From assembly GCA_032173965.1 (NCBI GenBank), contig CM063290.1, positions 1,178,001-1,242,000 of the forward strand: 64,000 nt of DNA. Reading direction: 5' to 3'. The stretch is from Sitta carolinensis. Taxonomy: Eukaryota; Chordata; Aves; Passeriformes; Sittidae. Below, piece by piece: positions 6,980 through 62,700 of this stretch; the first letter of the stretch is position 1, and each line of letters opens with the position of its first letter. Below the pieces are notes generated by a model that made no database searches, was not told where the DNA came from, and saw nothing but the letters and a program-made list of their open reading frames with translations. A program made the translations under genes and the position numbers.

Positions 6980-9900
6980 CTGTGGGCAGGGAACAGGGAT
7001 TGGGATAGAGGGGCGAAAAAACCCCAAACCTGCCCTGGGCAACTGCCTTGGAATAGAGGGACAAAACCCCCAAAAATCTGCCCTGGGCAGCTGCCTTGGA
7101 ATAGAGGGACAAAACTCCCCAAACCTGCCCTGGGCAACTGCCTTGGAATAGAGGGACAAAACCCCCAAAAATCTGCCCTGGGCAGCTGCCTTGGAATAGA
7201 GGGACAAAACTCCCCAAAGCTGCCCTGGGCAGCTGCCTTGGAATAGAGGCAGGGCACAAAAATCACCCCCAAACCTGCCCTGGACAGCTGCCTTGGAATA
7301 GAGGGCACAAAAAAAAAAACAAACCCAAACCTGCCCTGGGCAGCTGCCTTGGAATGGAAGGCACAAAAATTGGTTGAAATTGTGTTTATGCTGCCTGTGG
7401 GTATTGCATGAGCAGACCAAACCCTCCGTGTTTAGATAAAGTTTTATGACAAAACTGATCTCCCTGAACCCCTCACACATTTTCCAGAGTCATACCTGTT
7501 AAACCTCATGTCTTTCCTTTCTTCTTTAGAAACCTGGCCCAGGCTGTATCTCCTCACTGAGCCAGGGGTGCTGTTGTCCACATTTATTTTCTCTTCAAAA
7601 GCCTGGATTTTAACTTGAAGCTTTTCATCCTCCTCACTGCCATTCTCGACAGATTTTAAATCATCCAGTGGTACAGGGCATTCTGCCTCGGGGTCGTTTT
7701 CCATCCTGAGGAAGCAGAAAGCAGAGATTTAACCCTGGCACAGTGTGTTCATTGTGCTGCTGCTGTGTTTCTGCCTGGGACTTGTGGTTTGGATCTGGTG
7801 AAACAATTCTGTTTAAACAGAGATTCCCTGAGATCATTTTGAGGAACATCATCTAGATCAATATATCTGATAGGTCAGAAACACTGAACATCTCTGACAA
7901 CCCTGGGTTAGGAACTGCCAAGCACCAGGAAATCACAACTCTGTCCCTGATAGTCAAGAGTTTTTCCATCTGAACTCAAACCATTCTCTCAAAATTGCTA
8001 AACGCTGACTTATTGAATTATATTCATAAGGCAAAAGTCAAGCTATTTGCAGACTTTATAGAATTCTGTGGTTTTAAAGCTTTGACCAAAGTACATGCAG
8101 TTCTTACTGAATTATTGCCCTGTAAGAAGAAAAAATACCTTTTAAAACTCAGGAAAAGTTCTGAGCAATGTGACTCCAGCTCAGCAAAGAGCAAACAAAG
8201 AGTTAAAAGGAACTTGTAGGACTGCAGGAAAAGTAGTTTTGGTTTGGATTTATTATGTTTGCCTTAAAATCACAGAATCAGAGAATCATGGAAGGTTTGG
8301 GTTGGAAGGGGCACTGCCAGGGATGGGCAGCCACAATGTGCAACATTTTAATGCAAAATCCAAAGATAGCTTTCAAACAAATTGAAGGGAAGCTGTTGAT
8401 CTTACAGGACAAAAAGAAATCTGCTGGAAGAGATGCTGTTGGTAAAAATGTGCTGGGTTCCCTCACACAGCTTTGAAAATGGCTTTTTCTGGATTCCCTC
8501 ATTGCTCAGAGCCTGCAGGGACTCAGCTCCTGCGAATATTGGCTGGAAATCTGAATTCTGAGGATCTTTTCTCTGCTCTGAAGATGCTGCAGCAGCAGCA
8601 GGACTGGATTTCCCAGGGACCAGCAGCAAGAACACCTTTGCTCCTTCCCCTCCCTTGCTGGGGTGATGTGCACATTCCCATCTCACTCCTGCAAGCAGGG
8701 AGGAACTGGCACAAAAATTCATAAAGCAAACAGGAATCTCTTGGAGAATCGAGCAGGACTGGACAGTATTTACTTTTCAAACTCTACCCACAGCTCTAAA
8801 ACAAGTTTGTTATGCTTCTCACTATCTCTTTGTTTGATTTTCCTTTTTTTTTTTCCCCTGATGAGCAAACATGTGAGTAGTTAAATCTGTAAAACACGGA
8901 TATATAAAACCACAAGTGAGGGGTTTAACACAGCCCTTCCAAAGCAGCAGAGCCTCACAAGTCACTCTCGCAGCAGGAGAGCCCATTAAAAACTCCCCAA
9001 ACTGCAAATTACCAATTGTAAAAAGCCAGGTTTTGAAAAAACAACCAGAAATGCGGCATCACAAAATGCAGTTTTTCACTTGTTTTGATAAAGGCAGCTC
9101 GGGGCATTTCTCAGGGGAGCTGGCGAGTTTTGTCTTGCTTTGTTTTTCATTCAAGCAAGATCTCGTAATATATTAACACTGAGGAGCACTTCAAAAATAT
9201 TCCTCTGTAATAAAGACCCTTGATGTGACCTTTCCTAACAAATCTTCCTGGGGATGTAGGACAAGATTTAATTTATTGGGAAGCAGTCACTCCACCACAG
9301 CTCCCAACACTGCTCCATTGTGGGAGCTGAGCTCGAAGGGAAATTTCTGCTCCCTGTGTAAATAGAGGCAAAGCCTCAGGACACAGAGAGGGGATTGATG
9401 GACTGATGGGCTTTGGGAGGGACAGACCCCAACCAGGGAGCCTTGGAGTTAAAAATGGGGTTTCCAACAGCACCTCTTTGTCCAACATCCTCCTGCTGAG
9501 CTCCCATGGCTTTGTGAAGCGAATGCACGGAAATGCTTCTCCTAAAGAATCATAAAATGGCTGGAAAAGAAACGTGGGTGAATCCTATTTTCCATATGTA
9601 GAGCAGAAAAAAGGCACTCCTAGGGTGTGGAGGGTGGGCTCCTGAAGCCACCAGCTCATTCTTGCCCCTGTTGGTGCCAGGATTTCCAAGTGGGAAGCTC
9701 CGAGAGCCCAGGAGCTCTGCTGTGCACCAGCCTTGTGCTCACATCAGCTCCTTGGGAAGCCAAAAAGCACAAACCCCCCTCAAAACCCTCAGTGAGGGCT
9801 CCATCCCACCCCACTGGGGTGCCTGGGCTCCCCTTCCAGCTCCACTCAAACCAAACCCATTGTCTGCAGGCTTGGCAAGAGGCACTGGAGCATTGCTGAG

Positions 9901-12900
9901 GCTGCTGGAGCAGGATCAGTTTACACCAAAGCTGTTTGCAGGAGGAGGATGCACGAGCTCGTGGAGAAACAAAAATGGCAAAAATAGTGCTGGTGGCTTC
10001 ATGCTTTAAATCCTCTGGCCAAATGCTCCTCCATGTCCAGGTGGTGCATTAGATAAAGGATATTTCTCCAAAGCAGCAGCACCATTGTCACACTCAGGGT
10101 GGGGAAAAGAACATCCCAAAGGGACATTAATGAAAATTCACCTGGGATTGTGGCCAGGGCTTCACCTCTGGGCACACGGGGGCCACGAGGATGGATCAGG
10201 TGCTCGTGGTTTGCTAAGGGAGAGAAAATCACCTCCTCAAATAGGATGGAGGAGAGTGTTTGAAGAAGGGAAGTGGTGGAGAAAAGTTAATGGCATTGTC
10301 AGCAGAATGCCAGACTGGTTTGGGTTGGAGGGATGTTAAAGCTCATCCCAGCCCACCCCAGCCATGGCAGGGACCCCTCCCACTGTCCCAGGGTGATCCA
10401 AGCCCATCCAGCCTGGTCTGGGCACTGCAGGGATCCAGAGCTTGCCATCCTCTGAGCAAAGAACTTCCTCATATTTAACCTAAATCTCTCCTCTCCCAGT
10501 GTAGAACAATTCCAAGGAGCCACAACTGTGGGAGGAGCAGCAGTGGTGCAGCCTCCCCTGCTCAGAGCTTACCCAGAACCAGGACTGGGAAGCTTTCTTT
10601 CCCTTGACTGCACTGCCCCTCCAGATTGGAGAAGCCCATTAAAACCCTGGATATGTTCTTTAAAAGCCCCTCTGGGACTGAATAACTTGCAATTTTGGGA
10701 CAGTGAGGAGCAGCAGAGCATGGCCTGGTTTTAATTACGCTCCCCGGTCCCTGCATGTAAAATTCCCTGTGTCAAACAACACCAGGGCAGCCATGGCCCT
10801 GCAGAAATGAGCTTCTCCTTCTGCAAACACAGCAGTTTGGGAAGGAATGGTTATAACCCAGGCCCACAGCTAAAATCCTGCTTTCCTTCCACAGCACACT
10901 CTGCATTGCTGCTCTTCAGCTCAGGGACAGTGACTTCCACCTTCCCAGCTGGACTGCTCCCACTTCCCAAGCACGAGTCAAAATCAACCCTGCTTAAATC
11001 AGCAGAGAACTCTCCTTCAGCCTTGGCTGATACTCTGCCTGATACAGGCCTGAAATGTAAAACCAAATAGCTAAAAACTGGAAAAAACCAGCATTTTGCT
11101 GTGACCCCTCACAGCCATGTTGAGATAATGAGGGCACAGAGGGTTGGGGAGGGAATGAAATTTAAAATAAATCAAGAAATAAATAAAATGAAGGAGCAGA
11201 GAGAAAATCATCTGTAACCACACTCACACAGACCATGAAGCTTCTACTCCCCAGCCAGTCCTTAACAAAGAGAATTTTAGTGAGAAACAGTCAGATTTTG
11301 ATGAAAACCTTGTTTTTAACTGGGTTTTTTCAGCAGCTCTAGAGATAAATATTTAAGCACAGAATATAATAAGGAATATATATGATATAAAAATATAATA
11401 AGGAATAGGAATACACAGTATTTTAACAAATGAAGTAATTTTTCAACCATAAATGGAGGGACCACAATGAGTTCTGAATGCTGAAGGCAGATTCCTGCTG
11501 AGGTTCTGCCACCAGAACTTGGAAGCTTGGACATTTCTCAGTCTCACAGGGGCTCTCTCTGGGTTCCTCTCCTTTTTCATTTTTACCTCTCTCCAGGACA
11601 CCAATTTTTTGTTTCTCCACTGACCTCAGTGTTTTGGCTCCACCACTCCCAGTCTGGCTCCAGGGCTGGCCTTCACCATTAGGAGTTTTCTGACATCTGT
11701 GTTCCATTTTTTCAAAGAATCACTACTCCTCTGTGCCCCCCTGACCTGCTGCAGTGTACACAACTCTAGTTATAAGTCTCTCACTAATTAGAAGTGACTG
11801 CCACCCTGTATTTAAATAACATTTCATCCTCACCATGACGAACCCCACAACATGTTAACCTTGGAGTGCACGGTCAGAAGGAGATGAGTGAGCACAACAT
11901 CTCACTGTGGACGCTCCAGAAAATTTTTTCTGACATTTTTTGGACAATTCTTCACCGGGGAGCTACGCCAGCCATTGTTCTCATCACCCTCAGTGGGCAT
12001 TTTCTGGAATAAACTCAGTGATAATTGTGAGGCCTGACTTCACTGATTTATTTTTAACTGAAGCTTTATAACTTGCTCAAGTCTACTTATCTGGGACATG
12101 GATTTCTTCATGGCAGTGGGAGTATATTTAAAGGGAATTTTGGTGCCTCACAGTGATGCCTAAAGAAGCTCCCTAGGACAGAGGGTGGGCAGAGTTACAG
12201 GAATAAAGCAGGGATTTGTTAAAAGGTTTCAAAGGATTCACCTTGGGCAATGTAAGAGCCTGGCCGGGGCTACACCCAGGATGGGCCCAAGTCAGGAGTT
12301 TTCCCCCTTTGCTCAGCTCTGCTCCATTTCCATGCTGGGTTCATTGTCCAATCCCAGCCCCAGGGGATGCAGTCCCACCCTCCCAGATTCTCTCCTCAGT
12401 TCCTGCTCTTGGCACTTTTTGGGGCCAGAGCTGCAGCAGTGCCCTTGGTTCTGGGGCTGGAAAAGGATTGTTCTGTGCCCTTGGTTCTGGACAAGGATTG
12501 TTCTGTGCCCTTGGTTCTGGGGCTGGAAAAGGATTGTTCTGTGCCCTTGGCTCTGGGGCTGGAAAAGGATTGTTCTGTGTCCTTGGCTCTGGACAAGGAT
12601 TGTTCTGTGTCCTGAGCTGTGAGGAGAACTCACTGACACTTTCTGTGGAGTTCAGAGTCACCCCCCAGAGCAGGGCAGAGTGTGGGAAATGTGAAATGTG
12701 GGACTCAAGGCTTCACAGAGCCCTGGAGGAGGCTGGGGCTGTGTCAGCCCCACCATACCTGTCACACCCCCCAGTACCTGTCACCCCCAGTACCTGTTCA
12801 CACCCCCATACCTGTCACCTCCAGTTCCTATCACCCCCACTCCTGTCACCCCCACTCCTGTCACCCCATACCTGTCACTCCCAGTTCCTCTCACCCCCAT

Positions 12901-15900
12901 ACCTGTCACCCCCTGTACCTGTCACCCCCACTCCTGTCACCCCCATTCCTCTCATCCTCATACCTGTTCACACCCCCCACACCTGTCACCCCATACCTGT
13001 CACCCCCATTCCTCTCACCCCCAGCACCTGTCCCCCCACCCCTGTCACCCCACTCCTGTCACCCCCATTCCTCTCATCCTCATACCTGTCACCCCCATAC
13101 CTGTCCCCCCACCCCTGTCACCCCATACCTGTCATCCCCCTACCTGTCACCCCCATTCCTCTCACCCTCATACCTGTCACCCTAATACCTGTCCCCCCAC
13201 CCCTGTCACCCCCATACCTGTCACCCCCATTCCTCTCACCCTCATACCTGTCCCCCCACTCCTCTCACCCCATACCTGTCATCCCCATACCTGTCACCCC
13301 CATTCCTCTCATCCTCATACCTGTCACCCCCATACCTGTCCCCCCACCCTTGTCCCCCCACCCTGTCCCCGTCCCCCCGTACCTGCCGGTGGTGCCCAGG
13401 CGCCGTGCCAGCAGCCTGGCGATGGCAGAGAAGCTGTTGCTCATGCGGTAAATGTCCCTGCTCTGGGTGCCCAGGATGCCCGGGAAGGTGTCGGTGAGGC
13501 TCTTGATCTCCAGCAGCAGGAGGTGGTGGAAGGAGTGCTCCATGTTGGCCAGCTGGCTCACCAGGTACAGCAGGGACGCTCTGGCTCGCTCCTGGGCAGC
13601 GGGGAGAGAGAAGAGCAGAGCTGAGCACAAGCATTCACTGTTTGCTGCTGGGAGGGGGTGTTCTGTGTGCAGGGACTGAGGCACTGTCCCTGGGGAGCAG
13701 GGGCTGCCCCACCAGGGCAGAGGCAGCTGCCTCAGACACACTTTGTTTGTGGGTACACTGAAGAGCTTTTGTTGCTCTTGGTGCTACCTAACCCAGCCCA
13801 GCTCAGGAGATGTTGTCTCCTCAGACCCCCAGGCAGAGCCCTGGGGGCTCTTTGAGGGCCTGCATGGGCTCTGGGTTGGTAGCCTGGCTCAGTGGTCAGG
13901 GCCCCAGCAGCACCAAGCTCCCCTTTCACCTCTGCTGGGTCTGGCTCAGCTGCTTCATAAAACCAGGGAATGGTTTGGAAGGGACCTCAGAGACCACCCA
14001 GTGCCACCCCAGCCATGGGCAGGGACTCCTTCCCCACCAACACCTCCAGGGATGGGGAGCATCCAGCCTGGATCTGAACATCTCCAGAGGAGGGCTCCTC
14101 TGTCATAGTTGTCCTAATCAGATTGGGTTCCACAGTCCAAAAAACACCCAAGTGGGAAAAGCAGTGGAAAAACCAGCAATTAACTCAGGAACTCCCATCA
14201 GATCCTTCACTGGAGGAATCCTTTTGCCCAGGGAAGCCCACTTGGTCCTCAGCAGATTGCTGAGGAGAAACTGGGAGGTGTTTGGATCTCAGCCTGTGCT
14301 GAAACACAAACAAAGGCAAACCCAAACAGCTTTCTTCCTCCCGAGGAGGGCCAGCAGGGAGCTCATGTGCCACACATGTGCTCGGGACTCTGCAGGGTCC
14401 CATTTCCTCCTCTCTTCTGGGACCTCGTAACCAGAGAGCAAAAACTGCTGCAGGTTTGATTCCAGACCCAGCTGGGCTGTGAAAATACCCGGGAGACTCT
14501 GGCAGGACACGAGCATCAGGGGTGAGGTTTTTTTGGAAGAGCAAATCAAGGTAACCGAAGGAAAAGCAGCTCTGCTGCATCGTGCCACGGCTGAGATAAA
14601 AGGGAAGAGTGGATCAGAGAAATTGCATCCCTACAGCCATACGGGGAAAACTCCAGCCACGCCCTGGGCTGGGCTGGTGTGATGAAGGAGCTTTTTCCTC
14701 AATGGCTTGAACGAGGTTGGCTTTGTTGGTGCACAGTCACTCGTTTATTTGAAAGCCGATCCTTCCTCCAAGAGATAAACAGAGGCTCAATTAACATTTA
14801 AAACACATTTGTGTTTTCTAAACAAACTGTGCAGCAGACTAAATGGAGGAGCAGTTTTGACCATTTTCCTGTCGCTTTGATCCAGCTGGAGAGTCTCCAG
14901 CCATGCTGAAATGCTGCTACTCGCCTGGAGTGAGGTAAAAGAACAATAAACTCGCCTGAGTAATGTAATATGTAACTGTTATACAAAACAAAATTAAAGC
15001 AAAAGAGCTCAACATGAAAGCAGCTGTTATCCCTGCCACAATTCTTATCCCAAATGTTTCACAAAGCCTGTTTGGATGCACGTTGTTATTTCAGCAGTGC
15101 CTGTTTGATGTGTTCGTGTGTTTTCTCCTAAGCAGCCCTTGCATTTTATGGCATTACATCTGCCAGGAGGTGGAGAGCTGAAGCACAGGTAATGAGGTGT
15201 GGCAAAGCAGTGTGCTTTTTTTCTTCCAAACAGGTTCAGGAGCCTACAAAAAGATCACAAGGCTTTCAGAAATAACTCCAGCTCCCAGGTGGCTCAAAAC
15301 ATAGGGGGGAAAGAAAATAAAGTGTCTGCTTGCCCTAAGCCCCAAGATGGTTTTCTCATTTGCACAAATTCATGGTTAAGGGACAAGTTCTGATTTCAGT
15401 TTGCCCCCTGAGGGTGTCGCTGACACCAACAGAAAGGGTGTGTGTAAACAAGGGACAACCTCTCAAATCCAGAGCTCTCCTCTCTCCCGGGGTCCCTGGA
15501 AGCACAAGAGGCTTTTTCTAGGAGCCAGCAAGGATTTGCTGCTCACATCCACAGCCTGGACCGTCCCAGGCCAAGCCTCAATCCTTGCCACCTCTTTTCC
15601 CCAGGCAAGCCTTCCAGTGAAATAAAACACCAGCAAATAAAATTCCAGCAGTGCCACTGACGTGTCCTTGGCCGGGCAGGGGATGCTGATTCCTGCCTGG
15701 GAAGTGGCAGAATGTCCTGGCACAGCTGGTGACAGGACAGGCAGGAGGGGGGCTTTGGGAAGGCTCTGGCACAGGGGGTGGGAGGTGAGCCCAGCACAGG
15801 CACACAGGGGTTGATGGTTGGACTCGATGGGACTGCAGGGCTTTTCCAGCCTGGGAGATTCTATGGTGCCGTGGTCTCCCCTTGGGAATCAGCCATGGAG

Positions 15901-18900
15901 GCATTCCTTCTCCTCTCAGGTGAGGGATTCTTTCTCCAAGGCCAGGTTGGACGGGGCTTGGAGCAACCTGGGGTAGTGAAAGTGTCCCTGCCCATGGCAG
16001 GGGGGTGGGATGAGCTTCAAGGTCCCTTCCAACCCAAACTCTGCCATTTTAAGACCCTCCATAATTCAGAATAATTCACACTTCCTAACTTTTCAAAGAG
16101 CAAAACAAGAGAGGAGCCCTCGATCTCCTGGTGGAACATTCACCTCCACCACCCCTTATGTGTTGTTTTTATCCCTGGTTTTGAGTCTGGAGCAAAACCA
16201 GGGATGTCAGTGACAAACACAGCAAAGAAATGACAAATGTGTCCTCCCCTTGGGCTGGGAGGCTGCTGAGTCAGCAGCTCCCTAAAAAATCAGCCTCGTG
16301 ACAGGGGACATGGTGAGAGCTGCTCAACACTCACTCCAGGGAGACTGGCCATGAATTATTCACTGCAGGCTGCGTGTGCTGCACTCAGTAGATTGGTGCA
16401 GCCACCTAAACCAACAGGTTAAAGATGTGAGGGGAGAATATTCTTTGAATCATGGCTTTGCAAACATTACCCTAGCGGGTAATTTCCAGCACTACGTGAA
16501 ATCCAACGGGGCTGCTTGGTTGCTGTCTTATTCTTGGTTTGGTATAAAACAATCACAGCAACAAAAGGCAAAATAAATAAATTCAGCCCCTTTGAAGTAG
16601 CAGAACTTGGTGGAAACAGAGCCTCAGAGACAGCCAGATGGGGAGAGCTGGTTCAGCACCCCAAAACACAGAACCTGAGTTAAATCCTTCAGTCCCCAGC
16701 CCAGCTGTGCCCAGCTGAGGATTGGCTGGTCAGCAACTGTAAAGTTTCTAAAAAATGCTGACTCTCAAATACTAAATACAGGATTAAATGTGGTCACCTG
16801 CAGATCTTATAAAAGTAAAACTTGCTGGGGGATGGAAGTAAACAAGGAGAGAACAAAAAAACTTCATTTGGCTCCCAGGCCTCAATGGGATTTTGGCTCC
16901 TCTTCCCACTCAACAGAAATAAGATTTACAAAGCCAAGCCAAATCTGGTTTTGATTCTTCTGAGATAAATTTAATTTTACATGAATATAAAGCACCAGAT
17001 CAGTAGAAACAGCAAGGATGGTGTCTTCCTGTGCTGCTCAGGCACAGGAGGCCCAGCCAATGCACACCCAAATTAATTGCCAAGGGGGTCAGAACTGGAA
17101 TAAGATCATCCTTAGGGTCCATCCCAACCCAAACCATTCCATGAGTCCGTGGCAGGGCAGTCTGGTTACTCATGAAGAAAGAAATACTTTATACAAGATT
17201 AAAACCAACCCATCCCCAAACCTGAGGTGTTTCCCACCTCACCTCGTCGAGATGTCCAACAGCTCCAAAGATCTTTGCTGTCTGCCCAATCAAACTGGGA
17301 AAACTCTCCCCAATTTCCCTCAGCGTGGGAAGGAAAGGGGCCAAGGCTGCAGGCTCGTAGCTGGATATTTCCAGAAGGATGTTTAGAATCACCTCACTGT
17401 GGTTGGGGTCCCTCAGGTGTCCAAATAAAAATGGCAAACACTCTTTCAGCACCTGTTAAAAAAAATGAGAAACAAATTGGATCTCTGGTTTGAATTGTGA
17501 GCACATCTAACCAGAGGAGATACAGCCACCAGAGTGATAAAAATAAGGCACCAGACTCTGAGTTAATAGAAGAGATTTCCCCCCTTGGTGACCTTTGCAT
17601 GGAGCTATTGCTGAGGTCAATCCAAGTTCAATTGAACATATGGGATAAGGGTAAGCTCTGCTTTAAAATATGGCAGTTATGCATAAATAAGTAAGGAAAT
17701 GCCCAATTAAAAAAATAATACCAAAAAACCACCTTTACCAAATATTTTCCTTGCTCCAGGCCAGTGTATATTTTATTGATTTAAACAATAAAGACTCAGC
17801 CTTCCTCAATGACGCAGTAAATTAAAGCACTTGCAGAAATTTTTGGGTTCCACCAGAAATGAAACAATGTGACATGGCCAGGAGTGGGAATAGGGGGAAA
17901 AACGAGGGGCAAGACCCTCATTGCATAATAAATGTGCTGTAGGTAAGTTGTCATTTCTTGTAGGAACCCAATTTTCTTGTCATTTCTTGTAAGAACCCAA
18001 TTTTCAGGAGAGTGAGGGTGCAGCCCTCGGAGCCATCTGCCAAACAGGATGCAGTTGTGTACAAGTCCCCACTGAGGGATTAATTCAGAGTACACAGCCC
18101 CACTAATGCACCCTGGATCCAGGGAAGCTGCTGCATCTGTGGAAGAGACATTCAGACACAGACACGGGGCATAAAACAACCCCTTCTTATGTTTTTTTTT
18201 TGTGAGGATTATCAGTTCTCCTCAGTTCCTAAATCAAGTTAGCTGTCCTTGACGTGGATTTTAATACGCTGTCAGAAACACAGTTATGGGAATTCACACT
18301 CAGCTGACAGAGGAAGAGCCAAAACCATTGCAGACAAATGGCTTAAGCCCTGATCTCCTTATGACTAGGTGGAGAACCTGGGATGGGCTGGCAGAATTCA
18401 CAGGGAATTGGCCCAGGAGGGCAGTGCCCTGTGGGGTTCCTCCCTCCCCAAGCCTGTGAGACACAAACCCCTCCAGAGCAGGGGCAGGCACACATTCCCC
18501 GTGTGGTTTACCCCCAGTTCTCTCTTCCTGGCCACGGTGTGCAGGAGCCTGAGGAGGTGGAGCTGCTCGGGGGGGTCCAGCTGGGCCAGGGGGCCACCAG
18601 CCCGGGCAGGTGGGCGAGGATGGGCTGGGGCTGCTGCTCGAGGAGCGCGGGCAGCACCCGCAGCAGCAGCCAGTTCCCTGGGGACACAGAGCACACAGTC
18701 AGCCAGGCCCTGCACGGACCCCCAGCCCCACATTCCGTGTTTCCAGACTCTGCCCTGCTCTGGGGGGTGACTGAACCCCACAGAAAGTGCCAGCGACTCT
18801 GCTCCCAGCTCAGGAACAGAACAATCCTTGTCCAGAGCTCAAGGAGCACAGAACAATCCTTGTCCAGAGCCAAGGGCACAGAACAATCCTTGTCCAGAGC

Positions 18901-21900
18901 CAAGGGCACAGAACAATCCTTGTCCAGAGCCAAGGGCACAGAACAATCCTTGTCCAGAGCCAAGGGCACAGAACAATCCTTGTCCAGAGCCAAGGCACAG
19001 AACAATCCTTGTCCAGAGCCAAGGGCACAGAACAATCCTTTCCAGAACCAAGGCACAGAACAATCCTTGTCCAGAACCAAGGGCACAGAACAATCCTTGT
19101 CCAGACCAAGGACACAGAACAATCCTTTTCCAGCACCAAGTGCACAGAACAATCCTTGTCCAGAATCAAGGGTGGCCTTGAAGGATTATGAGTATAAAAC
19201 CAGAGAGACATAAAACTGTAGAAAATTATACATTTGGCCAAGAAACCAAATAAATTATCAAAATAGAGCAAGTCATTGCAGGTGTAACAACATTGTGTAA
19301 CCCCCCCCCACACACACTAATTCCTATTAATTATCATTTTATTTCTGAATATCATAAGAACACTGTTTAATAAACTTCCAGTTTTGGATCATGCTCTGTT
19401 GAGTTCTAGGCCAAACTAAGTGTGATTTCAATTAAGAAAGAAACAAAAGAAGAAAGAAGGAGAGAAATGACAAAAACAACAAAACCAACAAAAGACAAAA
19501 ACTACAATTCTCCTTTGCTGAGATTCAGATTTTCAAATTAAATAAGCATCATATGGAAGGAATAGTTGGTTAGCAGAGAACTAAACATGCATTTGAACAG
19601 AAATAGTTAAGGATGCCATTTCCAGGAATAGAAAGGAGCCAGAGAGAGCCAACTGCAGACAGAGATATGCTAAACCCTCTCTCACACGTTTTCTTAAGAT
19701 GTCTGTGCATAATTCAATTTGAAGCCCAGGCTCATACCAAAATATATAACTTCACATCGCAGTACATGCCTGCCTCAATGGATTTAAGTTTCACTTGAGC
19801 AACATATGGAAAACATCTGCCTATTGCAACCTAGTCTGGCTCCTTTCTGTAAACCCCTGGAAGTCCTCACGGCCTCTTTGGGTTTGGTTTCCAAGAGGAA
19901 TCAGCTCCCTGGCCTGCTGCTTTCCCTCCCATTTGCATCCGAGCCGGATGACTTTGGAAGATAAGCATATCTGTCCATGGCTGGGAGGAAAAGGATATTT
20001 GGGTTCAGACTGGAGCACGTGGGGCTCTTGGCAGATACAGAAAATGCACCCCAGGACACGGCTGGGAATCACAGCCTGCCCCCCAGCCCAGAAACCAGCC
20101 CATAACTCACACAGCTCTGAGCCCAGCAGCTCCTGATGACCCCTGAGGGTCCTTATCCTTCCCAGCAGGGGCTCTCCACTCCAGCCTGCTCCTTATCCTG
20201 TTTGGGGGATCCCTGGCTGCCTCCCAAGGCTGCTTCCAGCCCTCGAGCAGCCCCAGCAGTGCCAAAGGGCAGGCACACCCCACTGCCAGATCTATCTTGT
20301 CCTGTTCTCCACAATCCCACAGGCCAGGGGCAAAGGGAAGAGATTTGCTGATGGATCCCCCAAAGAGAGGAGCAGACTGCTCCATTCTGGCCATTTCCCA
20401 ACCACGCTCCCCAGGCTCTCGCTGCTGTGCCCAGCGGGTCTGGATTCAAAGGATCCCCACTAACGTTCCATGGGGTTGATGCCAAGCACCACTTCCCCCA
20501 GAGGGAGAACCTGGAGACCAGGGAAAGGTTCTGGTCCCCCCAGAGGGTGCTGGGCACTGCCCCAAGGCTGCCACAGCTCCAGTGCCTTTGGACACTGCTC
20601 CCAGGGATTGTTGGGGTGCCTGGGCAGGGCCAGGGGTTGGACTGGAGGAGCCTTGGGGGTCCTTTCTGACTCAGGCTACACAGTGAGAGACAGGTGAGAG
20701 GATGGATTCACTGGAACGTTTCTAGACTCGTGTCATAGTTCAAAATTGAAATATTTTGTACTGAACACACCACAAATTATTTTCTCTCTGGGTGACGTCG
20801 TGCTTCAGCTCTAAGTCCTTGCTTTGCACTTGCCCTTGCTTAGGCAAACTGAAATTTTTCTGCCCATGTGGAGCAGAGCCCTTAAACTCCAGTGAAATTT
20901 CACAACGATTGCAAAAGAAGAAATTCCCGTATTCCTGGACAGGCAGATTTCCTCTCAGCTTTAGAAGTGTGATGGGAAGGAATCCAAGAGGCAGTAACGA
21001 AAATAACAGCTTTAAGCAAGGAAAGACACCAACCTGAGCCTTGCTCTTGCCTAAGCTGGGATGTCAGGGATAGGAAGGGATCTGGAAGGGAAAACTGATT
21101 ATTTAGTCTGGCAAAGGAGTGTGGGGTGTACCAGAGGAGTGATGCAATCACAGATGATGGACTGCAGCCACCAAACCTCTCTGAACAAAAAATACTTTGT
21201 GCTAGCACAGCTTTGGGCAGCTTCCTGCAGCAAACACCGCTGGGCTGATATTCCCTAACCAAGATAAATGAAAAGCAAAGGCAATCAGAGCAACCCCCTC
21301 CCTCTGCAGTGAGGCTGAAGTGACCTCACTGACATGGAATGGCTTTTAAGTGGAGAACCTGTGTGCACACGTGTAAATAATCCCAGATACCCCACTTTGG
21401 GGCTGTTCTTCAGAGACCTCAGGAGAGGTCAGCAGGCACAACCCAGTTGGCCATTTCCTGGTCTTTTCATGTTTGAGGTAGCAAGGGATACTCAGAGCTG
21501 TTTGTTTGTCACAGCTTTCATGGGCTCTGAGGGGGTTTTTGCACACCCAGCTCCTCAAACCCCTGATTCCCAGAGCTCAGGTGGTGACATCAGGAATTCT
21601 GAATAATTCACTTTTTCCCAATCTTGCTTCATCTGCCTCAGTCTAAACTAAGAGCCTGTTTGTTGTGTGAGAATGGAAAAAACATCCCACTCAACTCCCT
21701 AAATGCCTTCCTCCCCTCTTCCTTCCCTGCCACCCTGACCCCCAATACTTTCCAGATCAGATTTTCTCAGCCTTCCCAAGCAGACCACAGGCTGGGAAGG
21801 ACAAAGTGTCCTGCAGCTGGGGACACTGCATGGCTGCAGGGGAGCCAGGGAGGGACCCCAGGGCCGTGGCTGGGTGGTGCCAGCCCTGCACCCACTCCTG

Positions 21901-24900: not shown

Positions 24901-27900
24901 CCCTTTAACATCTCCTGAGCAGCTCTGGTGTCCAGGGCTGGAAATGCTGCCAGCCAGCCAAGCACGCTGCCAGGGCACTAAGGGCACATTCCCTGCCTGC
25001 CAGGGGAATGTTCTGCCCTGAATATTCCCACTGGCACTGAGAAATCTCTAACCCGTGCTGCTGCAGTTTGGGGGATTTTTCCCCTCCCACAACACCTGCA
25101 CTGGTCAGCGAGGTGCCATAGAAAGGTGGGCTCATACCTCAAATCCCGACTTTGCTGTGCAGCACAAGCAGCAAACTCAGGTGTGGCAGAGCAGCCCCTC
25201 GTTTGTTCGCTTTGTTTGGGTGCAGAATTCCCACGTGCAAGATAAAAATGCCCTGAAATCACCCTGCCCACCAGCGAGCTGGCACTGCCCGCCTTCTAAC
25301 TGCTGCTGAACGGCTCTGTTCTCCACAAATACAAATTATTGCAGCCTGACCCCCCCAAAAACCACCCCGCGGGGTGGGTGTGTGGGAAGGAGGGGGTGCA
25401 GCATCTCCGGAGCGAGCTCTCACTCCGGGGAGCAGAAAGGAGCAGTAATTGCTCCAGCAAAGGCAGCAGCTCAGCCCCAGCCCCCTTGCCATCAAAGCTT
25501 TTACAGCCTAACCTGAGCCCAGCCCCTCACGCAGGGCACTCGCCTTTAGAAGAAAATTGTTTTCACTGCTTTATCACAACGCCTCAGAAATCTTTGGGGA
25601 GGTCTTGGAGCCTTTTCCTCAAACACAAACCTTGCAGAGATGTGATCTCATTCCTTATCTCCTCATACCCCAGCCAGCCTCAGCAGCTACTCTGCACTAG
25701 GTGAGAGCAACAAACTCGATCTGCATTGGAAATTCAGTTTATTTCCTCTGGTTCCCACATGATTTTACATAAAACAACCATACTTGTAAATTTAAAGGCT
25801 ACATTTTAAGTACTTCCAGAGTATCTCTCTGGATTATTTTTTTTTCCAAGGGAATTTTTAGCAACTGACTTTAATTTCTCACATCTTGACTTACTGCCAG
25901 CCATACTCTTGAGGGATTTTCTAATCACACTTTTTTGTTCTTTACTGAGGCTGGTTTTAATTTTGTTTAAGCTTTGATAATAGAGCCTGAAAGCCTGCTA
26001 ATTAAAAGCTCTTTCACAATAGTGCTCCTAAGTAGCATTTTAAGGAGAATCCCCAGCAGTTGCTCACTGACCCTGCCCCTCCTCAAAAGGGTCAATGGGA
26101 GATGTAAAATCTGCTCAAAGCTGGAGGGAAGCAGCCCATGAAATACCACAGCAGCTCAGACCTGGAGGGCACAAAGAGTCCTTCATTCCCTGGAGCAGAA
26201 ATTTCCACACACGTTTTCGACATTTCAGATCCTCCAGCTTCTTTAAACAGGAAATAAAGCAGCTTAATTGGAGAAGGGGCTGCTTGTTCCCTCCTGTCAC
26301 CTTGGATATTAACTTAGGTACAACCAGGGAACAGCACAGAAACCACCAGAAATGCCTTGGCTTTCCTGATCTCCAGTTGCCTTCCCAAGCTGCATACATT
26401 TCTGTTTTATCTAATTTCTATTATCAACACTTTGATTAATTGGACGTGAGAGAAGAGCTGGTTTAAAATATCATTGGCTCATCATTTCCCAGCACCCAGG
26501 AAAGCTCTTGGCCAAAAATTCCTAAAGGCAGGGCCAGGGAAGGGAGTCATGTAAATTAAATAAGCAAGCCCATCTCAGCGGTGTTCCTGCTTCTCAGAAG
26601 CTCCTGTGCCCTGATGCCCTGTTGCCCATGGCAGTTCCCTTCTCCAGGCACAGCCTCCCCCCATCCTGGCAATGCCTGGGATGTCCAAACCTGCCCTTTG
26701 AGGGGATCCCTGACCCCCTCCCTCAGCACAACCGAGGTATTTTCATTATTCCACACTTAGAACAGAGGATAAAACAACCGAGGGAGGGTTCCCAAGTACC
26801 TGGCAGAATTCCCCATCTCCAAGGGCTGGAGTCCCTCTCGCAGGAGGTTGTGCTCCATTCAGAGCTTCCCAGCAGCAGCAGCAGGCTGCATTAACCCTTT
26901 GGAGGTCACAGGACTGCACAGTGCCCCCCTGTGCAGGCAGGGAAGAGCCAGGAGACCCCTGCAGCCAGCTTATCCCTTGCCATAGTGTCCAGCAATTCCT
27001 CCACCAGCTCTGACAGCTCCTTCACATCATTCTGGGGCAGGTTCATGTGTCCCACAGGATGAGCTGAGCTCTCAGCTCCCTTTGGGAAGCTTGGAAGTGA
27101 GCCCTGGAGCAGGTGTGGGGACAGGCTGCCCAGAGGAGTCCCCATCCCTGGAAGTGCTCCAGAACAGGAGGATGTGGCACTTGAGGGCCTGGCTTAGTGG
27201 TGAGCATGGTGGTGCTGGTGAAGTTGGGCTTCACAGCATCATGGAGAGGTTTGGGATGAAGGGATCTTGGAGATCCTCCTGTTCCAAGCCCAGCTGCCAC
27301 AAGCAGGGACACCTTTCCCTCTCCCAGGTTGCTCCCAGCCTCATCCAGCCTGTCCTTGAACCCTTCCAGAGACGGGGCAGCCACAACTTGGTGACCACAG
27401 AGGTCTTTTCCGACCTTAATGGAACATCAAAGGTGCCAGCTGTGCACACACAAATAACCCAGTTCTCACCCCCTGACCATCCTCCAAACCTTTCCAGGCT
27501 GTGAAACCGCCATCCTGTTCCCCATGCGCTCCAGGAAGATCTTTGGGAGCGTCCACCCGACCTCTGGGATGACCCTGAGCTCCTTCACTGCCTGCATCTG
27601 GCTCAAGGTGACCGAGGCCTTGGACAAAACCATCGTCTTCTCCTACGGGACCAAGTTCAACCCCTACGAGCTGCAGCTGTACCTGAGCGGGGCGGCGGCC
27701 GTGCTGGCCGTGGGGGGAGCCCAGCACAAGCTGGCTGCCAGGGACGTGGTCACTCCTGGCCAGTGGCTGCACCTGTGTGGCACCTGGAGCTCGGAGAACG
27801 GCTCTGCGTCGCTGTGGGCACAGGGGCAGCTGGCAGCCAGTGCCTGGGACGTGGCTGCTGCTCACACCATCCCTGACGGGGGGCTCCTGCAGCTGGGCCA

Positions 27901-30900
27901 GGAGAAGAACGGCTGCTGCCTGGGAGGGGGCTTCGATGAGGCTCTGGCCTTCTCAGGGAAGCTGACTGGCTTTAACCTGTGGGACAGGGTGCTCAGCCCA
28001 GCTGAGGTGACTGCTCAGGGCACGGGGGGCACCTGTGGCACCCGGGGCAACGTGGTGGGCTGGGGGTCACGGAGGTGCTGCCCTACGGAGGAGCCCAGTA
28101 CGTGTCCTAAAGCCTCTGCACAGACAATGTCCCAGCAGCCGGAGCTGCAGGAGCCCCTGCCTCTGGAATTCTGAGGAACACCAGCACTGCAAGGCCACAG
28201 CACGAGCTGCTGTGGGGATGGGCTCCATCTCTGCCTGCTGGCCTGGCAGAACCCAGGAACATCCCACAGCCGAGGCTTGGGAAAAGCCGGCCCTGGGGCC
28301 AGGCAGCTCTGCCTCTGCAGGGCAGGGTCTTCTGCTGTCTGAAGTGAGGGGCACCGTGGGCATTCAGGAGCCAAATGGAGCTCCTGACATCCCTGCTGAG
28401 GAACATCTGACCTGGCTCTGCAAAACACAGCAGCTGGGGCTGCCCCTGGAGCCCTGGCAGTGCCCGAGGCCAAGCTGGGCAGAGCTTGGAGCAGCCTGGG
28501 ACAGTGGGAGGGGTCCCTGCCCATGGCACTGGCTGAGCTTTAGGGTCCATTCCAACCCAAACCATTCCAGGCTCCTCCAATCCTTGGGTTCTTTAGTGTT
28601 AATGTGAATTTTACAGAGGAAGCACCCAAGTCAAGAAACGTGTTGCCTATTAATTGTTGTTAGTAATGTGTAGACTCTAAGAAAGCTAGTTCCTTGTTTA
28701 AAGCATTATTTATGCCACGGATTGGTATAAAGATAATATTCCCCATCATAATCTGACGTTACATTGGGAGGAAATGCAGCTGTATTATATTGTACATTGA
28801 CTTTACGATAATTTTATTGAAATTATTTTTGTAAATAAAGATACTTGACTAGACTAAAACTCTCTACTCTTCTTATAAACCAAAATTCTGAACCAAGTCC
28901 CAGGTGGGACTTTTTCCACGTTTTGAACCATGCAGTTTTAGCTGCTGATAGAGCAAAAATAAAGAGCAACATCTCACAGGAGCAGAGAGAGAGAGACCCC
29001 ATGCACAATCCTGGCCCTCTGGGGCCAGGTTTTAAGGTACATTTGGACTTGTTTGCTGCCCTCAGGGGGTTTGCACGAGATAGAATTGCTGCTGAGTGCC
29101 AGTGATCCTCTTCTCTCTCACACAAACTTATCCCAAATCCCCTAAAAGCCAAGGGCTGGCTACAGAGCACAGCAGCAGCTGCAGAGAGCCAAGGAGCTGC
29201 TGATGATTTTCATGTGGAAAACACAGCATGAGCAGAGAATGATGAATCCCCTACTCCCTGGCTATGTAACATTTACAACAAGAACCATTACTTGCTACCT
29301 GTTGAAGCCTCTGAATGAGTTATCATGAGGAATGTCTTATTCAAAGCAATTCCTATTTCTCCTGGAAGCAGCCCATCCTTCTTCTCTATTCCCCGTTTCC
29401 CTGTCTCTCTCATTCTCTGCAGATGTCCTAAGAACACACTTGGACAAATTTCTTGTCAGGTTTTTGCTACACTTCCTCCTGACCATGACAGATCCTTGCT
29501 GCCTGGATACAAAAGTAGTAAAAAAAGGTAAATTCCACTTTCCCGTGCCATTCAAGGGGCTTGTGCTTCATACCTAAAGTTATATGACCTGCTCCAAAGT
29601 TTTGGCAGCACTTTGCTTATTTAAGGGAAAGGGAATTGCTCTGATTGCTGGAATTTCTCCTGTTACCCTGCAATAAAAATGTATCTACGTTATAAATGCT
29701 TGGCAGTAAACTTGACAAAAATCCCTCGCTAAGTAATATCTGCAAATAACCTTACAGAACAATGAAATATTACCTCTGTTCATCTCTGGCAGCCAAACCC
29801 CAGATCTTCAGAGTTCCAAAAACACTCGGGGTCCCAACATTGTGCAAGGGCAAAACCACTCTCAAGCCCTCCCTCTGTTCAGTGCGCTCCATTAAGTGAA
29901 AACAAATGTCCCTGAAATGCAGCAGGAAAAGGAAAATCCTCCCAAAGATCAACAGAAATCCTTCCTGGCTGCTCCTCTAACTGCAGCTCATACCTGAGAT
30001 GCTTTGTCTTGGAGGGAGCCCTCTCCCATCTCAGGTTTGGCAGAGGAGCAAATGCAAAGCTCAGCCTTCCATCCTCACTGGCTCAGCTGGAAAACTTCCC
30101 GAGGGCTCTGCTCTTCCTTCAGCACCTCCCAGGACCAGCAAAGCTCCCCCACAGCCAGCACCACCGCTCACCCCTCTCTCTCCTGCCTCACTCAACCGCC
30201 TTTGTCATCAGTTTGGAAAACACCGAGGAAATCGCCTTTTGGGAGAACTGGGGCTGCAGTTATGAAAAAACCTCTGCGAGCCTGCAGTGCTGACACAGAG
30301 CAAGGATCCTGCATCCTCGGGATGCCGGAGCTGCTCTGGAAGGTGGAGCAGCCACGGCACTCTGGGATCACAGGGCAGAGCTGTGCTGTCCCCCGGGAAT
30401 GGGAATAAACCCGTGTGTGATGGCCGGGGGCAGCACAGGCGTGCCCAGAGCCCGCGCTCGCTGGAGCCAAGCCCTTCCCAAAGAGCTCTTTTTTAGCTAA
30501 CGAGATAAGAACCTGGCTGCGCAGCCAAAGAGTTGCCCCAAGTAATGAAAAACTCCGGTTCCTCTCCAACATTTGCAGGCAAGGGGCCAAAGTTTGCTCC
30601 GGCTGGTGCCACGAGGCTGAGCCCCGTCTGTGCAGCCCCACAACCAGGCTTTGTCTCCAAAAACTGCCTTGGAAATCCATCCTGGGCAGCCTCGCCTCCT
30701 GCTGCCCTCAGCAAACCCTCCCAGGGCAGCTCCCAGCGTGCTGCAAACGCAGCTTCTCCTGCCTCCCATCCCGATTCCGTGCAGGGGATTCAGTCAGCAC
30801 GCTGAATAAATCATGCTGCCCGTGCCGAGCCGCCCCTTCCAGGCTGCAATTCCCAAACCGGATATCCACAGCAACATCTGCTGGTGGAAGAACATAAATA

Positions 30901-62363: not shown

Positions 62364-62700
62364 GCTGCTGGAAGTGCCCAGTTCTCTGTTCCATACTGGG
62401 ATGAACTGGGATCCTGCTGGAAGTGCCCAGTTCTCTGTTCCATACTGGGATGAACTGGGATCCTGCTGGAAGTGCCCAGTTCTCTGTTCCATACTGGGAT
62501 GAACTGGGATCCCTGCTGGAAGTGCCCAGTTCTCTGTTCCATACTGGGATGAACTGGGATCCCTGCTGGAAGTGCCCAGTTCTCTGTTCCATACTGGGAT
62601 GAACTGGGATCCCTGCTGGAAGTGCCCAGTTCTCTGTTCCATACTGGGATGAACTGGGATCCCTGCTGGAAGTGCCCAGTTCCCCCAGCCCGTGCCGGGA
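62364..62700. repeat. 49-50 bp minisatellite, seven copies
   Basis: gaagtgccca starts at 62,371, 62,420, 62,469, 62,519, 62,569, 62,619 and 62,669. The first two periods are 49 bp and the rest 50 bp (one extra c in gatccctg). The last copy decays into unique GC-rich sequence. Confidence 0.95.

What the first reader, a model, noticed from the sequence alone, without database searches (positions are those of the whole stretch)
12752..13383. A minisatellite made of 5' splice-site copies directly abuts the VEPH1 exon 6 donor
On the VEPH1 strand the intron begins CAG|GTACGG and runs at once into about 45 units, roughly twenty of which contain CAG|GTATG followed by a G run. Decoys of similar apparent strength lie 47, 62, 92 and 107 nt past the true donor. 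They are spaced by multiples of 15, and all add 3n+2 bases, so their use would break the frame into exon 7. The G runs could form quadruplexes or act as intronic splicing enhancers. The array probably grew by slippage from the splice site itself. Decoy use is inference; the sequence pattern is seen directly.
Basis: partly seen in the sequence, partly recalled or inferred. Interest (0 to 1): 0.8.

Follow-up and report, generated by a model that had tools for sequence, protein, structure and literature searches.

The report
Repeat array starting at a splice site
In what looks like a bird gene, the signal marking where an exon ends is the first copy of a 43-piece DNA repeat filling the start of the next intron; it resembles a recently described bird-genome instability, and whether the spare copies are used for splicing is unknown.

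Summary
On the minus strand the array starts in register at the last three bases (CAG) of a VEPH1-like exon: 43 pieces, 24 starting CAGGT. The real donor scores as a typical unit; none of 126,592 other window positions and none of 182 other CAGGT sites match as well. Twenty-three GT sites score no more than 1 bit below the true donor on a recalled matrix.

The four named decoys would shift the frame and stop in the next exon. One short-loop quadruplex motif exists.

It is not unique. In the same genome such arrays begin exactly at the donor of PYGL and of a CYP11A1-like exon, and probably of others; PYGL units carry about 12-15 exonic bases, pointing to growth from the junction. The kind is published: 'sequence stuttering', Hron et al. 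2026, PMC12954441.

Best reading: a junction-seeded, probably neutral minisatellite of that broad kind, on a 25.8-Mb contig, with only 3 exonic bases copied. For VEPH1 itself the direction of growth is inferred. Decoy use is untested.

The parts
13383..13591 (-).
   Evidence: gene name recalled, Pfam 0 families
12744..13385 (-). 43-piece array, consensus CAGGTATGGGGGT(GA), in register from exon base -3
13377..13385 (-). true donor CAG|GTACGG, first unit of the array
13276..13336 (-). span of the four nearest CAG|GTATG decoys (first intronic bases 13335, 13320, 13290, 13275); use would frameshift and stop in the next exon
13263..13271 (-). GGG|GTGAGA at +114: in-frame alternative donor that would add 38 residues; best U1 pairing of the 8 sites tested
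13265..13267 (-). first in-frame stop (TGA) if the intron start is read through
   Evidence: derived
13354..13378 (-). the only short-loop G-quadruplex motif (intron +5 to +29)
7496..7705 (-). next exon (210 nt), acceptor TTCCTCAG|G, own donor CAG|GTATGA without such an array

Best explanation
This is a minisatellite that grew out of the exon-intron junction: a stretch starting at the exon's last CAG and running into the G-rich start of the intron was copied in tandem, so that the working 5' splice site is unit 1 and later units carry donor-like copies. The exon stayed intact because selection removes changes in it. The array is most likely a neutral or mildly deleterious by-product of a replication or recombination instability that recurs at splice junctions in GC-rich parts of bird genomes ('sequence stuttering'). 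Shown: register, membership of the donor in the array, recurrence at PYGL and a CYP11A1-like exon. Inferred: direction of copying at this locus, neutrality, and that the first donor still dominates with rare decoy use removed by nonsense-mediated decay.
For: The donor scores as a typical unit, 0 of 126,592 other positions do. In PYGL 12 exonic bases recur in 8 copies (1 of 200 shuffles reaches this) and 15 in 6 copies (0 of 200), within one mismatch in eight; that exon's 35-residue reading is identical to liver phosphorylase up to the donor codon, so the exon is constrained and the unit is likely the copy. A second array starts at the donor of a CYP11A1-like exon whose homology runs to the codon before the donor. 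Published precedent: in chicken, sources of exon copies lie within 1 base of the exon border in over 90% of cases (PMC12954441 section 7). Decoy transcripts at +47 to +107 stop about 47 nt into a 210-nt exon, so decay is expected (recalled 50-nt rule).
Against: In VEPH1 only 3 exonic bases recur; with 6 or more there are 0 close copies, so growth from G-rich intron sequence with a shared CAGG is not excluded. CAG in the units of the nine loci is partly a result of choosing them by a CAGG motif. Donor-type arrays are not in excess genome-wide: CAGGTRNGG x3 has 887 matches against 1,190 for the pattern read backwards and 1,888 for CAGGGRNGG x3. In the sample of 27 arrays only 2 donors have homology up to the border (Fisher p 0.49 against 0 of 26 controls); 5 of 27 with by-eye borders counted, p 0.05. 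Control arrays also lie by acceptors: one (L103) abuts one by eye, another (L102) lies near one.
Confidence: 0.62

Rival explanations
1. Ordinary intronic G-rich minisatellite that expanded until it met the exon; the donor looks like a unit because both are CAGG plus a G-rich intron start, and selection keeps the exon edge.
For: G-rich arrays abound here and crowd contig ends with or without GT; VEPH1 copies no exon beyond CAG; four sampled arrays start 13-60 nt past a donor by eye; control arrays can also border exons (L103).
Against: The donor is in register and scores as a typical unit; PYGL units hold exonic bases.
Confidence: 0.28
2. Functional donor cluster: several donors are used, giving frameshifted (decayed) and in-frame (+114, +38 residues) products, so array length tunes VEPH1 output, as in the human IFI6 minisatellite.
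For: 23 GT sites no more than 1 bit below the true donor; U1 pairing: true -7.4, CAGGTATG decoys -7.2 to -7.7, +114 -9.3 kcal/mol; precedent by title, Turri et al. 1995.
Against: No RNA or conservation data; matrix and U1 end were recalled; strong sites fall in all phases, unlike a selected in-frame set.
Confidence: 0.1
3. The downstream U1 sites and G runs act as an intronic enhancer that strengthens the true donor without being cut themselves.
For: U1 binding just downstream of a 5' splice site can enhance exon definition (abstract of PMC5933811); 43 runs of three or more G in 631 nt, the first at +5.
Against: Nothing tests it here; a by-product needs no function.
Confidence: 0.1
4. Assembly artefact that copied a junction.
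For: GC-rich repeats assemble badly; the CYP11A1-like (L118), STRA6-like (L088) and PYGM-like (L012) exons do not read in one frame to the donor, by eye.
Against: Units differ from one another; similar arrays at several loci; the published ones were checked in raw reads for PHF8 (PMC12954441).
Confidence: 0.05

Closest known systems
Sequence/exon stuttering in bird introns (Hron et al. 2026, PMC12954441; abstract, found passages and sections 7, 9 and 16 read)
   Same: local tandem expansion inside an intron, source at the exon border, splice donor copied, exon intact, GC-rich context
   Different: here 3 exonic bases, below their 20-bp limit; unit about 15 bp; a 25.8-Mb contig, not a dot chromosome; variation between individuals unknown
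Human IFI6 (6-16) minisatellite providing multiple splice donor sites (Turri, Cuin and Porter 1995; only the title seen, in reference lists; paper not held; the 6-16 name recalled)
   Same: minisatellite whose units are splice donors
   Different: donors serve a transcript there according to the title; use in VEPH1 unknown; the first four decoys break the frame here
Intron gain by tandem duplication (PMC4974935, search listing only)
   Same: tandem copying that involves splice sites
   Different: no new intron here; copies lie in an existing intron

Membership tests
Sequence stuttering (broad) | massive local expansion of short sequence within an intron | tested here: met
   43 pieces in about 640 nt
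Sequence stuttering (broad) | repeats stay inside the intron, exon intact | tested here: met
   exon reads through in one frame, array match stops at exon -3
Sequence stuttering (broad) | extensive length variation between individuals | not testable with these tools
   one assembly only
Exon stuttering (strict screen) | copied exonic part of at least 20 nt | tested here: not met
   VEPH1: 3 nt; 0 close copies with 6 or more exonic nt
[quoted passage not shown]
   first unit spans the border
Exon stuttering (strict screen) | mostly on dot chromosomes (190 of 236 introns; not absolute) | tested here: not met
   contig C15 is 25.8 Mb
IFI6-type multiple-donor minisatellite | several array donors used in mRNA | not testable with these tools
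   no RNA data

The most novel reading that the evidence does not exclude
Splice junctions are themselves recurrent seeds of minisatellites in GC-rich bird introns also outside dot chromosomes, with sense copies (CAG|GTRNGG) at donors and antisense copies (CCTCACCTG, holding a branch-site-like CTCAC, motif recalled) at acceptors, and in VEPH1 the array length tunes the share of frameshifted, decayed transcripts.
Probability: 0.08. Interest if true: 0.8.

Novelty: new member of a known kind. Interest (0 to 1): 0.4.

Why it matters
It would extend a just-described instability to a copy unit that is almost only the splice site, and it offers a natural test of how cells choose one 5' splice site among some twenty near-equal ones. 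Homologous exon borders of PYGL and a PYGM-like gene both carry such arrays with different units, which lets one ask what makes a junction prone to it.

Tried and rejected
Genome-wide excess of donor arrays: rejected as stated (the CAGGGRNGG pattern read backwards gave 715). A narrower pattern, CAGGTAWGG x3, gave 50 matches against 24 read backwards, and CAGGCAWGG x3 gave 4 against 5 read backwards. The 50 lie in 10 arrays (my grouping); 4 were examined: PYGL exact donor, NHS-like exact donor by eye, two with no exon seen (L051, L083); 6 were not fetched. Quadruplex as a general property of the array: weak. Pfam for the VEPH1 exons: 0 families. The first unit-splitting script was faulty and replaced; one search had a wrong next-exon start and was redone. 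VEPH1 with minisatellite: 0 papers; 'sequence stuttering' or 'exon stuttering': 1 paper. Other birds could not be compared here.

Mended on re-reading: I first counted SHARPIN-like L061 and STRA6-like L088 as homology-supported donors. Their matches cover only the front of the exon (residues 1-49 of 76; 1-21 near the exon start), and L061 has another possible donor 49 nt upstream, so its '18 exonic bases' may be intronic. L058 starts 17 nt past its donor and is now 'near'. The controls are not free of exons (L102, L103).

The NDUFS2 label for L016 rests on eye and a weak Pfam match (E 0.23).

Full report
What is there. On the minus strand a 209-nt coding exon ends CAG at 13383 and the intron starts GTACGGGGGG. 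Cut at CAGG-like boundaries, the DNA that follows is 42 pieces plus a last one: 21 are 15 nt, 11 are 14, 5 are 16; 24 of the 43 start CAGGT and 16 start CAGGTATG. TRF's 15-bp array starts only at 13346, probably because the first pieces vary in length. The exon's own donor belongs to the array: it scores 18.61 bits on a profile of 35 interior units (median 18.77); no other of 126,592 window positions reaches this, nor any of 182 other CAGGT sites. The donor of the next exon, CAG|GTATGA, scores 1.34.

Splicing consequences. Of 67 GT in the array, 23 score no more than 1 bit below the true donor on a recalled matrix. U1 pairing by ViennaRNA, with a recalled U1 end, gives -7.4 kcal/mol for the true site, -7.2 to -7.7 for the six CAGGTATG decoys tested and -9.3 for GGG|GTGAGA at +114. 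The +114 site would add 38 residues in frame. Beyond about +115 the reading is stopped. Whether any decoy is used cannot be told from DNA.

G runs. There are 43 runs of three or more G in 631 nt, the first at +5. Only one short-loop quadruplex motif exists, at +5 to +29; allowing loops to 12 gives nine.

Not alone. A similarity search gave 50 matches in the same genome, the window included; 39 stretches around the others were fetched. Among them, arrays of CAGGTGAGG start at two donors of a phosphorylase gene on a 2.0-Mb contig, borders by eye. I call it PYGM-like; chicken PYGM lies on a dot chromosome (PMC12954441).

A sample not chosen by likeness to VEPH1. I took the places that one search lists for CAGGTRNGG three times (the first ones in contig order, of 887); by my grouping they form 27 arrays, and I read the 5' side of all 27 as far as the fetched stretch went. 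First motif exactly at a donor: 5 of 27. In two of these homology runs to the border: PYGL and a CYP11A1-like exon (E 4.8e-7). In two the exon has homology but the border is by eye: SHARPIN/RBCK1-like L061 (another possible donor lies 49 nt upstream) and STRA6-like L088 (Pfam just under cut-off; PDB 1.3e-4). One, NHS-like L084, is by eye only (Pfam 0 families). Four start 13-60 nt past a donor by eye (L116, L058, L060, L048). Three lie antisense within about 15 nt of an acceptor: CPSF1 with homology to the border (L078), L079 (weak TMEM214) and L062 by eye. Three are unclear (L049, L052, L086) and in twelve I saw no exon.

Control. For CAGGGRNGG, one search lists places that I group into 27 arrays; 26 were fetched. 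None starts at a recognisable donor, but in one (L101) the array edge was not reached, one (L103) abuts the acceptor of an ankyrin-like exon in antisense by eye, and one (L102) lies near an acceptor. Fisher p against 0 of 26 is 0.49 for 2 of 27 and 0.05 for 5 of 27. I labelled the sets knowing which was which, the control pattern cannot carry a GT donor by design, and the sets lie on different chromosomes. The sample shows recurrence; it neither measures a rate nor proves an excess.

Direction of copying. In PYGL 12 exonic bases recur in 8 copies (1 of 200 shuffles of the exonic part reaches this) and 15 in 6 copies (0 of 200), within one mismatch in eight. The PYGL reading is identical to a liver phosphorylase chain (human, recalled) over 35 of 35 residues, the first from a split codon, so the array most likely copied the exon. 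In L061 12-18 bases recur (0 of 200), but its border is uncertain. In L017 9 exonic bases recur in 11 copies (7 of 200) and in NHS-like 6 in 7 copies (68 of 200), so these say little. In VEPH1, STRA6-like, CYP11A1-like and the second PYGM-like donor there are 0 close copies with 6 or more exonic bases, and in the first PYGM-like donor no more than shuffles give. For VEPH1 the origin from the junction is therefore inference from register plus analogy.

Place in the genome. Of the 27 donor-pattern arrays 20 lie within 2.1 Mb of a contig end, against 7.6% of the length of those contigs; of the 27 controls 13, against 4.9%. VEPH1's array is 1.19 Mb from a contig end. Contig ends need not be chromosome ends.

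What is known. Hron et al. 2026 (PMC12954441) describe 'sequence stuttering' in chicken: intronic expansions that in some genes copy the exon edge with its splice donor or acceptor; [quoted passage not shown] sources within 1 base of the exon border in over 90%; exonic parts 20-187 bp. With its 20-bp limit their screen would not list a case with 3 exonic bases, and they expect many more stuttering introns than it found. The human IFI6 minisatellite is an older precedent for an array of donors (title only). The VEPH1 array fits the broad kind and fails the strict exon-stuttering cut-off.

Verdict. The surprising part, repeats that copy splice junctions, is in print; the open part, whether some twenty near-equal donors are ignored and how, is testable with RNA.

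Noticed in passing
L012 (C36) and L085 (C11:20083900-20085000): Two phosphorylase paralogues (PYGM-like, PYGL) both carry donor arrays at the homologous exon border, with different units, in one genome.
   Followed up: partly
L016, L033, L038, L062, L078, L079: CAGGTGAG-type arrays lie antisense close to acceptors; on the gene strand the unit CCTCACCTG holds a branch-site-like CTCAC (recalled). CPSF1 (L078) is supported by homology, the L033 exon matches F-box-like in Pfam, the others are by eye or weak.
   Followed up: partly
L016 about 1200-1330: The start of an NDUFS2-like exon (by eye) appears at least twice inside the array, like exon stuttering at an acceptor.
   Followed up: no
window 12439-12613 and 18812-19172: A similar 30-36-bp unit (ACAGAACAATCCTTGTCCAGAGCCAAGGGC) forms two arrays 6 kb apart, one just past the array studied.
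   Followed up: no
L088, L118, L012: STRA6-like, CYP11A1-like and PYGM-like exons do not read in one frame to the donor, by eye; assembly error in GC-rich DNA or decay.
   Followed up: no
window 62365-62682: 50-bp unit, 6.4 copies, 99% matches: probably a very recent array.
   Followed up: no
window 27458-28171 (+): Pentraxin domain (PTX3-like) on the strand opposite to VEPH1.
   Followed up: yes
L103: A control-type array (CAGGGGGGGAAAAAA) abuts, in antisense, the acceptor of an ankyrin-like exon by eye: exon-abutting arrays are not limited to donor-like units.
   Followed up: no
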